In this document: positions 1,105 through 42,418 of the stretch, one piece after another
How the letters are laid out: the number at the start of each line of letters is the position of its first letter
Position numbering within the stretch: position 1 is the first letter of the stretch
NCBI RefSeq assembly: GCF_002252505.1
Contig: NZ_NNRL01000158.1
Span: forward strand, 62,001-126,000
Origin: Brucella grignonensis
Lineage (GTDB): Bacteria > Pseudomonadota > Alphaproteobacteria > Rhizobiales > Rhizobiaceae
Direction: 5' to 3'
DNA: 64,000 nucleotides
Notes under the pieces: model-generated
Databases searched by the model: none
What the model saw: the letters and a program-made list of their open reading frames with translations, nothing else
Told to the model about the DNA's origin: nothing
Position numbers and translations under genes: made by a program

Positions 1105-1155
1105 TAGAGCGCATCCCGAAAAGTGTATATCGGTTTTCGGACAAGATGCGCTCTA
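1105..1155. repeat. palindromic repeat, TAGAGC family, type A
   Basis: The outer arms TAGAGCGCATC and GATGCGCTCTA pair perfectly, and inside them CCGAAAA pairs with TTTTCGG. Near-identical cores recur at 4670-4718 and 63158-63205, with a diverged copy at 45932-45974. It is non-coding and lies between the efp terminator and suhB. It looks like a short dispersed genome repeat without its own transposase. Confidence 0.8.
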
Positions 1156-1298: not shown

Positions 1299-2090
1299 AT
1301 GGCCCGCTCAGCCCTTCTCAATGTCATGGTACAGGCCGCAATGAAGGCCGGCCGCAGCCTTGCGCGCGACTTCGGCGAAGTCCAGAACCTTCAGGTTTCC
1401 CTTAAAGGCCCCGGCGACTACGTCAGCCAGGCGGACCGCAAAGCGGAAAAGATCATTTACACGGAATTGAGTCGCGCCCGCCCTGATTTCGGCTTCCTGA
1501 TGGAAGAATCGGGTGAGGTTGAATCCAAGGATGGTCAGCATCGCTGGCTGGTTGATCCACTCGATGGCACTACCAACTTCCTGCACGGTATTCCAGTTTT
1601 TGCAGTCTCTATCGCTCTCGAGCGTCAGGGACAGATTGTTGCTGGCGTCATTTACAATCCAGCGATGGACGAACTCTACACCGCTGAACGCGGCGGTGGC
1701 GTGTTCCTCAATGATCGTCGTCTGCGTGTTGCGGCTCGTTCCAAGTTGGTCGATTGCGTGATCGGCACCGGCATTCCACATCTGGGTCGCGGCCATCACG
1801 GCCATTACCTCGTGGAACTGCGCAATGTCATGGCCGAAACAGCTGGCATTCGCCGCATGGGTGCTGTTGCCCTTGATCTGGCCTATGTTGCTGCAGGCCG
1901 ACTTGACGGCTTCTGGGAAGATGGCATGCATCCGTGGGATCTCGGCGCCGGCATGTTGATGATCCGCGAAGCAGGCGGCTTTATCTCCGATAAGAATGGC
2001 GGGCAGGATATCTTCGGCACCAAGACCATTATTGCTGGCAATGAAGTCATTCACGGCGCACTGTTGAAGACGATCAAGAAACCTATCTAA
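1299..2090 (+). CDS. suhB: inositol monophosphatase family protein (SuhB-like)
   Basis: A 263-aa Mg2+-dependent phosphatase of the inositol monophosphatase superfamily. The metal-binding motif DPLDGTTNF is near residue 87, the upstream acidic residues are in the MEESGE segment, and the second signature HPWDLGAG is near residue 211. Such enzymes release phosphate from inositol phosphates; in Enterobacteria SuhB also joins rRNA antitermination complexes, which cannot be inferred here. ATG 1299 has AAGGA upstream. An antisense 277-codon open frame over the gene is a shadow. A hairpin terminator follows at 2160. Confidence 0.9.
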   Translation: MARSALLNVMVQAAMKAGRSLARDFGEVQNLQVSLKGPGDYVSQADRKAEKIIYTELSRARPDFGFLMEESGEVESKDGQHRWLVDPLDGTTNFLHGIPVFAVSIALERQGQIVAGVIYNPAMDELYTAERGGGVFLNDRRLRVAARSKLVDCVIGTGIPHLGRGHHGHYLVELRNVMAETAGIRRMGAVALDLAYVAAGRLDGFWEDGMHPWDLGAGMLMIREAGGFISDKNGGQDIFGTKTIIAGNEVIHGALLKTIKKPI

Positions 2091-2159
2091 AAGCCAATCC
2101 CACTGCTTTATTGATCCCGCCTTCTTTTTCTTTTGGATCAACTAGGCAAAGTCCACAAA

Positions 2160-2189
2160 CAAAGCCGAGCGATAAATCACTCGGCTTTG
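2160..2189. terminator. bidirectional terminator between suhB and the 21-aa ORF
   Basis: CAAAGCCGAG pairs with CTCGGCTTTG across a 10-base loop. On the plus strand it ends suhB (followed by TCTTTAG). On the minus strand it is followed by TTTG runs and lies 32 bases after the stop of the tiny ORF at 2221-2286, so it can close that transcript too. Confidence 0.75.
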
Positions 2190-2220
2190 TCTTTAGTTAA
2201 TTACAAACTAATTAAGAATA

Positions 2221-2286
2221 TTAGAAGCTAGAAAGAAACTTACCGATAACTTCTAGTACTTGCCAAACAACATTCCACCAATGCAT
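2221..2286 (-). CDS. candidate 21-aa amphipathic membrane-active peptide
   Basis: A 21-codon frame from ATG (2286) to TAA (2221). GGGAG lies upstream with six to seven bases to the ATG, a better ribosome site than many annotated genes here have. The peptide starts MHWWNVVWQV and ends in GKFLSSF. Polar residues H2, N5, Q9, E12, K16 and S19 recur every three or four positions and all others are hydrophobic, including three tryptophans, so the helix would have one polar and one greasy face. It has its own downstream terminator and a very AT-rich upstream region. It resembles phenol-soluble-modulin-like or small toxic/membrane peptides in form only; no homologue is claimed. Confidence 0.55.
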   Translation of the reverse strand: MHWWNVVWQVLEVIGKFLSSF

Positions 2287-2588
2287 GTTATTCTCCCATT
2301 TTTTATTTGAGTGCAAATAAGAATAAATAACAAAATCATATAATTAAAAATACCAATATATTATTTAAATTGCTATGATACTTTATTATATTTATATAAT
2401 AACCCTCTAAAGTTAGAATTGCTACCAATTTTGATATAGAATCTGCATTTTGAGATTTGTTTTTGACCTCATCACAAAGCTGACAGCCAACGTCATAAAG
2501 CTGTGCAATTTTCTTGTTTGAGATGATTCCGCTTCATGAACTAATGAAGTAGGATTCTGTTTGAGCACCCGACCATGGAGCAGGACGC
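2287..2588. other. AT-rich intergenic region
   Basis: About 300 bases of strongly AT-rich DNA (especially 2310-2410), unlike the rest of the window. It holds the ribosome site of the minus-strand 21-aa ORF at its left end and GGAGCAGG, the ribosome site of the MotA/TolQ-like gene, at its right end. No longer ORF is seen. Its composition suggests promoter DNA, a binding region for xenogeneic silencers, or acquired sequence. Confidence 0.6.
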
Positions 2589-3632
2589 ATGAGCGATTTG
2601 AGACTTTCACGGGAACGACTGGACGATGCACGGGACTATGACCCCTACCGCCTGAGCAGCCCGAGAATTGTCATTCTCTCCATGGTGATCTTTCTCATCA
2701 TCGTTGCATTCCTGGCAGCGGTGCTCATGCGACAGATCCACACATTCTTCGTCACCAATCCCGGCCTCAATGGCCTGATCCTCTTTGTGCTACTCGTTGG
2801 CGTTCTACTGGCATTCGGGCAGGTACTGCGATTGCTTCCGGAAATCCGCTGGGTCAATTCATTCCGCGACGGCGAACGCGACGGAGCCACGCGCCCGCCT
2901 GTGCTGCTTGCTCCGATGCGTGCTTTGATCGGACGTAGACAATCCATGGCGCTCACGACAGCGTCTATGCGCTCCATCCTTGATTCGATTGCCACACGAC
3001 TTGATGAAAGCCGCGATATATCGCGCTATCTGATCGGCCTTCTGGTGTTCCTCGGCTTGCTCGGCACGTTCTGGGGGCTGCTGGAGACCGTCGGCTCCAT
3101 CGGCAAGACCATTCAATCACTCGATCCAGGTTCGGGCAGTACAACCGATGTGCTCGATTCGCTCAAAGCCGGCTTGCAAGCACCGCTTTCCGGGATGGGC
3201 ACCGCATTCTCCTCCTCACTCTTCGGCCTTTCCGGATCGCTCATCTTGGGCTTTCTCGATCTGCAAGCAGGACGCGCGCAAAACCGCTTCTACACCGAAC
3301 TTGAAAACTGGCTTTCGTCGGTCACGGATCTTAACTCCGATCTGACACCGGAAGATAATATCGGTGGCATGCGCAATCTCGCCGAACATGTTCAAAATCT
3401 GCAGGGTGGCGAGGCCTCCAGCCAGCGCACATCGGCGGCGCTCGCCAATCTGGCTGAAGGCATTCAGGGACTGGTCAAAAGCATGCGTAGCGAACAGCAG
3501 ATGATGCGCGACTGGGTCGAAAAACAGGCGGAAGAACAAAAAGCCATCCGCGAGACGCTCGACCGTCTCAACAAAGCCATCGGCACGAAAGCCGTAAATG
3601 AGCGTCCGACCGACGGCAAGCGACCGGAGTAA
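2589..3632 (+). CDS. MotA/TolQ/ExbB-type proton channel family protein
   Basis: A 347-aa inner-membrane protein. Hydrophobic segments lie near residues 28-48, 60-82, 148-172 and 195-220; the last two match the MotA/TolQ/ExbB core, including LLGTFWGLLETVGSIG. The C-terminal third is a predicted cytoplasmic helical region rich in Glu, Gln and Lys. The partner gene starts five bases downstream and encodes a MotB-like protein, so the pair probably forms an ion-driven motor that acts on the envelope. No flagellar or Tol-Pal genes are nearby, so the substrate is unknown. Start choice is supported by GGAGCAGG before the ATG. Confidence 0.85.
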   Translation: MSDLRLSRERLDDARDYDPYRLSSPRIVILSMVIFLIIVAFLAAVLMRQIHTFFVTNPGLNGLILFVLLVGVLLAFGQVLRLLPEIRWVNSFRDGERDGATRPPVLLAPMRALIGRRQSMALTTASMRSILDSIATRLDESRDISRYLIGLLVFLGLLGTFWGLLETVGSIGKTIQSLDPGSGSTTDVLDSLKAGLQAPLSGMGTAFSSSLFGLSGSLILGFLDLQAGRAQNRFYTELENWLSSVTDLNSDLTPEDNIGGMRNLAEHVQNLQGGEASSQRTSAALANLAEGIQGLVKSMRSEQQMMRDWVEKQAEEQKAIRETLDRLNKAIGTKAVNERPTDGKRPE

Positions 3633-4669: not shown

Positions 4670-4718
4670 AAGAGCGCATCCCGAAAAGTGTGAAGCGGTT
4701 TTCGGATAAGATGCGCGC
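4670..4718. repeat. palindromic repeat, type A
   Basis: AGAGCGCATCCCGAAAAG with its complementary right half; the same core as the copy at 1105-1155. It begins immediately after the TAA of the MotB-like gene. Confidence 0.8.
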
Positions 4719-4727
4719 AAAATAAGT

Positions 4728-4751
4728 AAAGGGGCTCAATGGCCCCCTTTT
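4728..4751. terminator. shared terminator of convergent genes
   Basis: AAAGGGG and CCCCTTTT arms around an eight-base loop, with T or A runs on both sides. It lies between the MotB-like gene and the convergent ABC exporter, whose stop codon it touches. Confidence 0.65.
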
Positions 4752-6574
4752 CATTTGCCGAAAACGCCTGCACCTGCCTCAAATTGCAGCTTGGCAAGGC
4801 GCGCATAAATGCCGCCCTGTGCAACAAGGGTCTGATGCGTGCCTTCTTCGACAATCTGGCCCTTATCGAGCACCAGAATACGATCCGCTTTAAGCACGGT
4901 CGCCAAGCGATGAGCGACGACAAGCGTCGTGCGATTATCCATCAGACTATCAAGCGCCTTTTGCACCAGCATTTCGCTTTCTGCATCCAGCGCTGATGTC
5001 GCTTCATCAAGCAGCAAGATCGGTGCAGCACGCAAGATAGCGCGCGCTATAGCAATGCGCTGACGTTGACCACCAGAAAGCGTCACACCGCGCTCACCAA
5101 CCTCTGTGTCATAGCCCTTGTCCAGCGCCAGAATGAAATCATGCGCCAAAGCGGCCTTCGCGGCCGCTTCAATGTCAGCGTCGCTCGCACCCGGTCTGCC
5201 AAAACCAATATTCTCACGAATGCTGGTTGCAAAGATTGCTACATCCTGTGGCACCACAGCAATACGCGCACGCACAGCGACAGGATCCGCTTCAGGCAGC
5301 ACCACACCGTCCATCAGCACAGAGCCAGCCTGTGGATCGTAATAGCGCATCACCAGCGAGAAGATCGTGCTTTTACCTGCACCTGATGGCCCAACGATAG
5401 CAACCGTCTCACCAGGCTTTACAGTAAAGCTCACACCATTGAGTGAAGGAGCATCAGGACGGGTCGGATAAGAGAAGTGTACCTTATCGAAGCTGATTTC
5501 CCCACGCGGCGGTTCTGGCAATGCGACTGGCTTCAAAGGCGCTGCAATATCGGGATTCTCATCGAGTATCTCTGCAAGACGCTCTGTGGCTCCAGCCGCC
5601 TGCGCGAGTTCACCGCCCACTTCCGAAAGAGCGCCAAAGGCGCTGGCCGCAAAGACGGCATAGAGAACGAACTGACCCAATGTGCCAGCGGTCATGGTGC
5701 CGGATAGCACATCCCGCGAGCCAAACCAAAGTACAGCGACAACGCTGGAAAAGATCAGGAAAATCGCGAACCCGGTCAGGATTGCGCGTGCCTTGATCGA
5801 GGAACGTGCAGCCTGATAGGCTTTCTCAACCGCGCCCGCAAAGCGACTCACCACCATGTTTTCATTGGTAAAGGCCTGCAACGTACGCATGGCACCGATT
5901 TGTTCGCTCGCATAGGCATTGGCATGGGCAAGCATATCCTGCGTCATGCGCGAGCGACGACGTACTGAACGACCAAAAGCAATCAGCGGAATAACGATCA
6001 GCGGAATGGCCCCTATCACCAGTGCCGAGAGCTTCGGACTTGTGATCACCATCATGATAAGCGCGCCAATGCCGAGAATGAGGTTCCGTAGTGCAACAGA
6101 AGCGGTCGCGCCAACAACTGACTTGATCTGCGTGGTATCGACCGACAGACGCGAAACGATTTCGCCCGATTGCGAGCGGTCAAAGAATTCCGGCGAAAGA
6201 CTGGTGACATGCGAGAACACCGCATTGCGCAAGTCAGCCACCACACGTTCACCGAGCGAGATAACGAAGAAATAGCGAAGCCCCGAGGCTACGGCCAAAA
6301 TGAGCGCGAGTGCAACAAGCATGCCGAAGTAATTATTGACGAAGATCGCATTAGCGCCCGTGAAACCGTGATCGATCATCCGGCGTACGGCGACTGGAAC
6401 GGCAAGCGTCGTCACGGCAGCAAGAACCAGCGAGAAAAGAGCGCCCACAACCAGAATCTTATAGCGTGAAAGGAAGGGGATCATACGCTTCAGAGGCTTC
6501 AGCGAGCGGCGTTTACGGCCTTCCTGTGCATCGAAATCGGGATTCATGCGAATTTGACTGTCTCTGCTGGCCAT
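4751..6574 (-). CDS. ABC exporter, fused permease and ATPase (MsbA/ABCB type)
   Basis: About 607 aa. The N-terminal half has six transmembrane helices. The C-terminal nucleotide-binding domain has Walker A GPSGAGKST, signature TLSGGQRQR, Walker B ILLLDEATSALD and a switch histidine in VAHRLAT. It is a half-transporter that works as a homodimer exporting lipids or amphiphilic substrates; the substrate cannot be told. The frame extends 34 codons further upstream to 6676, but that stretch lacks a ribosome site, so the ATG at 6574 (MASRDSQIR) is preferred; a third option is MNPDFDAQ. It is divergent from rpmE. Confidence 0.9.
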   Translation of the reverse strand: MASRDSQIRMNPDFDAQEGRKRRSLKPLKRMIPFLSRYKILVVGALFSLVLAAVTTLAVPVAVRRMIDHGFTGANAIFVNNYFGMLVALALILAVASGLRYFFVISLGERVVADLRNAVFSHVTSLSPEFFDRSQSGEIVSRLSVDTTQIKSVVGATASVALRNLILGIGALIMMVITSPKLSALVIGAIPLIVIPLIAFGRSVRRRSRMTQDMLAHANAYASEQIGAMRTLQAFTNENMVVSRFAGAVEKAYQAARSSIKARAILTGFAIFLIFSSVVAVLWFGSRDVLSGTMTAGTLGQFVLYAVFAASAFGALSEVGGELAQAAGATERLAEILDENPDIAAPLKPVALPEPPRGEISFDKVHFSYPTRPDAPSLNGVSFTVKPGETVAIVGPSGAGKSTIFSLVMRYYDPQAGSVLMDGVVLPEADPVAVRARIAVVPQDVAIFATSIRENIGFGRPGASDADIEAAAKAALAHDFILALDKGYDTEVGERGVTLSGGQRQRIAIARAILRAAPILLLDEATSALDAESEMLVQKALDSLMDNRTTLVVAHRLATVLKADRILVLDKGQIVEEGTHQTLVAQGGIYARLAKLQFEAGAGVFGK

Positions 6575-6745
6575 TCTTGAGATTGCGCCCTTGTTATTGC
6601 TGTGCGCCTGATGTATAGGCTCGCCAACCCTTTTGGAAGCCGTTGCCTGCAAGTAACGGGTCTTCATATCTGCCATTGGGCGAAAGTGCCGCAGTTTTAA
6701 ACATTAGAGCTGGGCTTTTCTTCCCAGACTTTCAGGATTGAGAAG

Positions 6746-13340: not shown

Positions 13341-13486
13341 GGAAAAACGCACATATCTTTGAAGGATAAGGCGTTTTAGAGCATTCGCGCCAAAAGCGCG
13401 AGGCAGCTTTGGACTGAACAACGCATAAGTTAGGAAAGTGCATAAATCAGAGAAAAGTGGCGACCACGACGACCGATGGTAGTGAT

Positions 13487-13640
13487 TGATCCCGGGAACC
13501 TACAACGTAGGTGGGCGCCATATGCGAAAGCCCACAGGCCTTCACAGGGACAGCTCCCTTAGAGATCAATAAGGCCCCGGGGATGCTGTAACACCTGTCG
13601 GGAAGCGCAGTACGCCGACAACCTATATAGGCCCTGTCAG
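13487..13640 (-). ncRNA. ssrS: 6S RNA
   Basis: The conserved 6S location, immediately downstream of zapA on the same strand and upstream of the cyclo-ligase gene. Read on the minus strand, a long closing stem forms: bases 13634-13621 (GGGCCTATATAGGT) pair, with small bulges, with 13512-13491. The internal region can fold as a rod with an asymmetric central bubble, as 6S RNA mimics an open promoter to bind RNA polymerase. No coding frame occupies the interval. Exact ends are estimated to within some 10-15 bases. Confidence 0.75.
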
Positions 13641-42163: not shown

Positions 42164-42261
42164 AAGTCGCTCATAACACGCGTTAATTATCCTCGAAAGC
42201 CCGCGTCTTGATCATCACCATCCCTTGCCCTTCTGTTTGCGAGGCACTATTGTCACCATCG

Positions 42262-42360
42262 CTCTAACGGGGTGCCATTCAATCATGAATGGCTGAGAAG
42301 CCGCACTCCGGCTAACCCGCTGAACCTGATCCGGCTTGTACCGGCGGAGGGATTAGACGC
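42262..42360 (+). ncRNA. TPP riboswitch (thi box)
   Basis: Core elements of the TPP aptamer appear in order: GGGGTGCC, GGCTGAGAAG, ACCCGCTGAACCTGATCCGG and CCGGCGGAGGGATTAG. It ends about 60 bases before the thiB ATG and should shut off thiBPQ when TPP is high. No clear rho-independent stem follows, so control may be by ribosome-site sequestering. Confidence 0.97.
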
Positions 42361-42418
42361 TGCCCGATTTATCGATAACGGCGCTCAATCCTTTTACTGA
42401 AAGAAAGGACCTGCCGTT

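What the first reader, a model, noticed from the sequence alone, without database searches (positions are those of the whole stretch)
2221..2286. Candidate 21-aa amphipathic peptide gene with its own ribosome site and terminator
In an AT-rich gap on the minus strand, an ATG preceded by GGGAG opens 21 codons. Its polar residues (2, 5, 9, 12, 16, 19) repeat every three to four positions and all others are hydrophobic, with three tryptophans. A hairpin with T-rich tail follows 32 bases after the stop. A stand-alone unit this small with a perfect amphipathic helix suggests a membrane-active peptide: toxin, signal or envelope regulator.
Basis: partly seen in the sequence, partly recalled or inferred. 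Interest (0 to 1): 0.78.

Follow-up and report, generated by a model that had tools for sequence, protein, structure and literature searches.

The report
Tiny amphipathic peptide gene in Brucella/Ochrobactrum
A 21-residue helical peptide, shaped to sit in a membrane, is encoded by a genuine small gene that selection has kept in a scattered subset of Brucella (Ochrobactrum) species at one fixed place in the chromosome; what it does is still unknown.

Summary
The ORF is as described: 2221-2286 (-), 21 codons, GGGAG six bases before the ATG, a strong hairpin 30 bases after the stop. It is a genuine coding gene. Homologs sit in the same slot, convergent with a suhB-like gene, in 6 of the 34 other genus genomes searched, 48-67% identical (38% in one). 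They keep frame, ATG, ribosome site, W3, E12, G15, K16 and the amphipathic helix (moment 0.45-0.50). Substitutions spare amino acids clearly in this frame only (combined P 3e-8; other five frames 0.005-0.95). A promoter-like island and a covarying hairpin flank it. No family match at cut-off in Pfam or NCBIfam, and no convincing relative outside the genus in the samples searched. Carriers are scattered on two gene trees. Best reading: a membrane-inserting peptide that works like the type I toxin TisB on the cell's own membrane. No antitoxin was found, so it is not filed as a type I system. An exported surfactant- or bacteriocin-like role is the main rival. That it is a gene is shown; what it does is inferred.

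The parts
2221..2286 (-). Peptide gene, 21 codons plus TAA
   Evidence: Translation; coding selection in sense frame 0; homologs in 6 of 34 other genus genomes
2293..2297 (-). Ribosome site GGGAG, six bases before the ATG
   Evidence: Sequence; a G-rich purine motif precedes the ATG in 7 of 7 carriers
2318..2360 (-). AT-rich promoter-like island (approximate limits), conserved more than its surroundings; no standard promoter was recognised on this strand
   Evidence: Windowed identity 0.69-0.71 against 0.43-0.56 further upstream; alignment; no minus-strand site in the consensus scan
2159..2190 (.). Hairpin, likely a terminator shared by the peptide gene and the convergent suhB-like gene
   Evidence: Fold; 14 consensus pairs, 5 with changes on both sides in at least one of 6 sequences, some pairs broken in one or two; not flagged by the terminator scan
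1299..2090 (+). Flanking gene: inositol monophosphatase family (suhB-like), convergent
   Evidence: PF00459, E 6.6e-62
2589..3632 (+). Flanking gene: MotA/TolQ/ExbB-like membrane protein, divergent
   Evidence: PF01618, E 8.7e-5, 22.7 bits just under the 22.9 cut-off

Best explanation
A genuine small-protein gene, probably transcribed from its own AT-rich promoter region and ended by its own hairpin, makes a 21-23 residue peptide without a signal sequence. Shown: coding selection, and one conserved amphipathic helix with a narrow polar face. Inferred: the helix lies on or inserts into the inner membrane. E12 and K16 are placed so that two antiparallel copies could pair E12-K16' and K16-E12' about residue 14, and a 21-residue helix (about 31 angstrom) can just span the lipid core. 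It therefore most likely works like TisB: made only under some stress or release from silencing, it perturbs the cell's own membrane.
For: The profile gives E <=1.8e-12 in 7 of 35 genus genomes, the next match being 0.19 (the model was built from these 7). All 7 are in the same slot. Amino acids are spared in sense frame 0: combined P 3.4e-8, against 0.87, 0.86, 0.005, 0.06 and 0.95 in the other five frames (six edges chosen by me, treated as independent). pN/pS is 0.26-0.86 in 20 of 21 pairs and 0 in the near-identical pair. Moment 0.45-0.50 with the peak at 100-105 degrees, shuffle P <=0.002, in six of six distinct peptides. HeliQuest-like D 0.57-0.98. Islands: ORF identity 0.70, upstream 0.56, downstream 0.37 among 5 genomes. 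TisB is described as a 29-residue amphipathic protein in which K12 and Q19 of the polar face are essential (PMC11449926, passages).
Against: No antitoxin was found: no promoter-like site on the opposite strand running over the ORF and no consensus structure in leader plus ORF. No family match. Net charge is only 0 or +1. D of 4 of 6 peptides (0.57-0.67) is under the 0.68 usually taken as lipid-binding (threshold recalled). The 3' third of the ORF is poorly conserved in DNA. There is no expression or toxicity evidence.
Confidence: 0.42

Rival explanations
1. An exported or released surfactant- or bacteriocin-like peptide, working like staphylococcal phenol-soluble modulins or leaderless bacteriocins against neighbours.
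For: Leaderless short amphipathic helix with N-terminal Trp; patchy among species; amino-acid change (pN 0.12-0.43 in 20 of 21 pairs) far above that of the flanking suhB-like gene (pN at most 0.059).
Against: No linked exporter or immunity gene in the gap; no match to known families; near-neutral charge.
Confidence: 0.25
2. A small regulatory membrane protein that binds one membrane partner (as CydX does), with the invariant W3, E12, G15 and K16 as contact residues.
For: Specific residues rather than amphipathicity alone are invariant in the 7 homologs; the fixed slot is beside a membrane-protein gene.
Against: Both neighbours persist in genomes without the peptide; no operon partner.
Confidence: 0.25
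3. A non-coding RNA or chance ORF in AT-rich DNA, or an attenuator leader.
For: Bare ORFs of this length are common in such DNA; the strand folds better than its shuffles (z -3.67).
Against: Coding-frame-specific selection; no consensus structure in leader plus ORF, so the strong fold is mostly the hairpin; the next gene is convergent, so there is nothing to attenuate.
Confidence: 0.04

Closest known systems
TisB (type I toxin of Enterobacteriaceae, 29 aa)
   Same: Tiny single amphipathic helix; charged residues and a Gln form the polar face (passages of PMC11449926).
   Different: No sequence relation found; 21 aa with fewer charges; no antitoxin RNA found here.
Staphylococcal phenol-soluble modulins / delta-haemolysin
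   Same: Leaderless, 20-odd residues, amphipathic helix (general knowledge; no sequence compared).
   Different: No Pfam match at cut-off and no related PDB chain; Gram-negative host; no linked dedicated exporter shown.
Leaderless class II bacteriocins
   Same: No leader, membrane-directed helix (recalled).
   Different: Shorter; no immunity or transport genes in the gap.
CydX-type small membrane proteins (CydX of Brucella abortus is mentioned in a passage of PMC10117765)
   Same: Very small, membrane-linked.
   Different: Not in an operon with a partner; patchy among species.

Membership tests
Type I toxin-antitoxin | Small hydrophobic or amphipathic peptide | tested here: met
   21-23 aa, moment 0.45-0.50
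Type I toxin-antitoxin | RNA antitoxin, cis or trans | tested here: inconclusive
   No promoter-like site on the opposite strand running over the ORF in the scan of 1500-3500; a trans-encoded RNA was not searched for
Type I toxin-antitoxin | Structured leader that hides the ribosome site | tested here: inconclusive
   No consensus pairs in 6 aligned sequences; the single-sequence fold of the window strand does pair the ribosome site
Type I toxin-antitoxin | Growth arrest on overexpression | not testable with these tools
   bench question
Phenol-soluble modulins | Match to known family models | tested here: not met
   5 of the 7 homologs scanned: none at cut-off in Pfam (two weak unrelated hits, E 0.13 and 0.084) and none in NCBIfam; PDB best E 0.33, unrelated
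Phenol-soluble modulins | Dedicated ABC exporter | not tested
   An ABC exporter gene lies at 4751-6676, two genes away; no link was tested
Leaderless bacteriocin | Linked immunity or transport genes | tested here: not met
   No other plausible gene in the 498-base gap; flanking genes persist in genomes without the peptide
Attenuator leader peptide | Regulated gene downstream on the same strand | tested here: not met
   The next gene is convergent and a hairpin intervenes

The most novel reading that the evidence does not exclude
The gap beside the suhB-like gene is an exchange slot for tiny membrane peptides: one allele carries this new Trp-rich 21-residue family acting as a minimal charge-zipper pore, two genomes carry other hydrophobic mini-ORFs (29 and 36 aa), most carry none, and alleles are swapped by homologous recombination, as at weapon or dormancy loci.
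Probability: 0.2. Interest if true: 0.7.

Novelty: new member of a known kind. Interest (0 to 1): 0.5.

Why it matters
Genes this short are missed by standard annotation. Here comparison alone shows that a 21-codon ORF is under coding selection, and it gives a small, well-bounded genus-restricted family in which the minimal requirements of a membrane-active helix (W3, E12, G15, K16) can be read from natural variants. If the slot really exchanges peptides, it would be a compact case of how mini-proteins arise, move and are lost.

Tried and rejected
Led nowhere: Rfam scan of the window gave only 6S RNA and a TPP riboswitch elsewhere. DNA search of the gap in 199 family genomes gave, besides itself, only short or weak AT-rich matches (best E 9e-6, 80% over 57 bases). 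The profile in 394 family genomes gave 83 genomes at E <=1 and in 297 order genomes 3 at E <=0.05, own included; next to the window's own (1.8e-13) the best were 0.009 and 0.0046. The five such matches that I inspected are partial: four (L069, L070, L112, L113) lie opposite longer open frames, one (L073) in a short open frame of 41 residues without a full-length match; the others were not inspected. The family sample happened to hold few members of the genus, so it did not retest the carriers. One carrier peptide against plasmids: no match. A degenerate DNA pattern in genome contigs: 4 stretches, all Brucella; in viral contigs: 0. PHROGs: 1 of 7 members weakly matched one unnamed family, E 0.057. 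PADLOC was not run; no structure was predicted.

Considered and rejected: a second copy in G211 (E 0.37), which starts at a GTG and does not keep the pattern, and a match in G016 (E 1.26) inside a 123-codon open frame. An antisense promoter inside the ORF: no consistent element seen by eye. An RNA-based function: no consensus fold.

Literature: searches of one open-licence library showed no paper on such a peptide in this genus (listings and abstract starts only; passages in PMC11449926, PMC8309996 and PMC10117765). Subscription papers are not covered.

Full report
What is there. On the minus strand, 2221-2286 reads MHWWNVVWQVLEVIGKFLSSF and a TAA stop. It lies alone in a 498-base gap between an inositol-monophosphatase (suhB-like) gene that runs towards it and a MotA/TolQ-like gene that runs away from it. 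The gap falls to 22.5% GC in 2200-2399, against 52-60% in the genes. GGGAG stands six bases before the ATG. A strong hairpin at about 2159-2190 follows the stop after 30 bases.

Is it a gene? A search of 35 genus genomes (own included) with the single peptide found five relatives at E <=0.0013, and weak matches at 0.37 and 1.26 that do not hold up. Reading the same slot in other genomes added a sixth, more diverged relative, G228. With a profile of the seven, 7 of 35 genomes match at E <=1.8e-12 and the next is at 0.19; since the model was built from these seven, the point is the gap below them. Identity to the window's peptide is 67, 52, 52, 52, 48 and 38%. M1, W3, E12, G15 and K16 are invariant. 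All seven keep the ATG with a G-rich purine motif before it; G228 also has an in-frame ATG four codons upstream.

Selection. Placing the observed substitutions at random, the sense frame keeps similar amino acids with combined P 3.4e-8 over six edges; the other two sense frames give 0.87 and 0.86, the antisense frames 0.005, 0.06 and 0.95. The 0.005 is for the antisense frame in codon register; that frame has a stop in the window's sequence. pN/pS is 0.26-0.86 in 20 of 21 pairs and 0 in the near-identical pair. Single pairs are weak evidence: two of nine in the simpler test had P above 0.05. Synonymous distances of the peptide (0.35-0.68, near-identical pair aside) are near those of the suhB-like gene in most pairs (0.22-0.54), as expected for old shared ancestry. 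Two exceptions are higher in the peptide: G000-G210 (0.49 against 0.22) and G200-G228 (0.51 against 0.23); with about 12 synonymous sites these are rough. The peptide's amino acids change far faster than those of the suhB-like gene (pN 0.12-0.43 against at most 0.059).

The unit. Among five genomes, conservation has separate peaks: an AT-rich stretch some 35-80 bases before the ATG (0.69-0.71), the ORF (0.70 overall, falling in its 3' third) and the hairpin (about 0.72), with 0.43-0.56 further upstream and 0.37 between ORF and hairpin. The hairpin has 14 consensus pairs in six sequences, five of them with changes on both sides that keep the pair; two or three outer pairs are broken in one or two sequences. 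No consensus fold exists in leader plus ORF. No standard promoter was recognised on this strand.

The helix. The moment is 0.45-0.50 and peaks at 100-105 degrees in six of six distinct peptides, shuffle P <=0.002. The HeliQuest-like D is 0.57-0.98, two of six above the recalled threshold of 0.68.

Distribution. Flanks were found in 34 of 35 genomes; the one miss, G217, is 72% complete. In the 30 genomes whose loci were read, 7 have the peptide (gap 494-535 bases), 2 have a long gap with other mini-ORFs (426 and 593) and 21 have a short gap (147-229). The four others show short gaps from match coordinates alone. On trees of either flanking gene the peptide label needs 5 changes (starred branches force at least 4 and 3); shuffled labels do as well in 62 and 54 of 500, so carriers are not clearly clustered. 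G207 is close to the window's genome yet has a short gap of the type seen in other lineages, which suggests allele replacement by recombination (inference).

How it may work. The helix, the absence of a signal sequence and the stand-alone unit point to a membrane-active peptide. I favour action on the cell's own membrane, like TisB, with E12 and K16 as a minimal charge zipper (inference). AT-rich DNA in this genus is bound by the H-NS-like silencer MucR (abstract starts in the listing), so silencing of this promoter is plausible but untested. Against the type I label: no antitoxin found.

Novelty. No match at cut-off in Pfam or NCBIfam for the five members scanned, one weak PHROGs match, nothing related in the PDB, and none seen outside the genus in 394 family and 297 order genomes at full length. 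It is a new family of a known kind of thing.

Noticed in passing
L064 1838-1927 (-), genome G227: Same slot, long AT-rich gap with a 29-aa hydrophobic ORF and a hairpin after it; only its own genome matches well among 35 genus genomes, so it is a lone ORF without conservation evidence.
   Followed up: partly
L068 1004-1114 (-), genome G205: Same slot, 593-base gap with a 36-aa hydrophobic ORF followed by a hairpin; no match in the other 34 genus genomes; moment not significant (P 0.17).
   Followed up: partly
window 1106-1155 and 4671-4716: Two copies of a palindromic intergenic repeat of about 46-50 bases, each just after a gene (read by eye).
   Followed up: no
window 13458-13616 (-) and 42258-42369 (+): 6S RNA and a TPP riboswitch, ordinary.
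   Followed up: no
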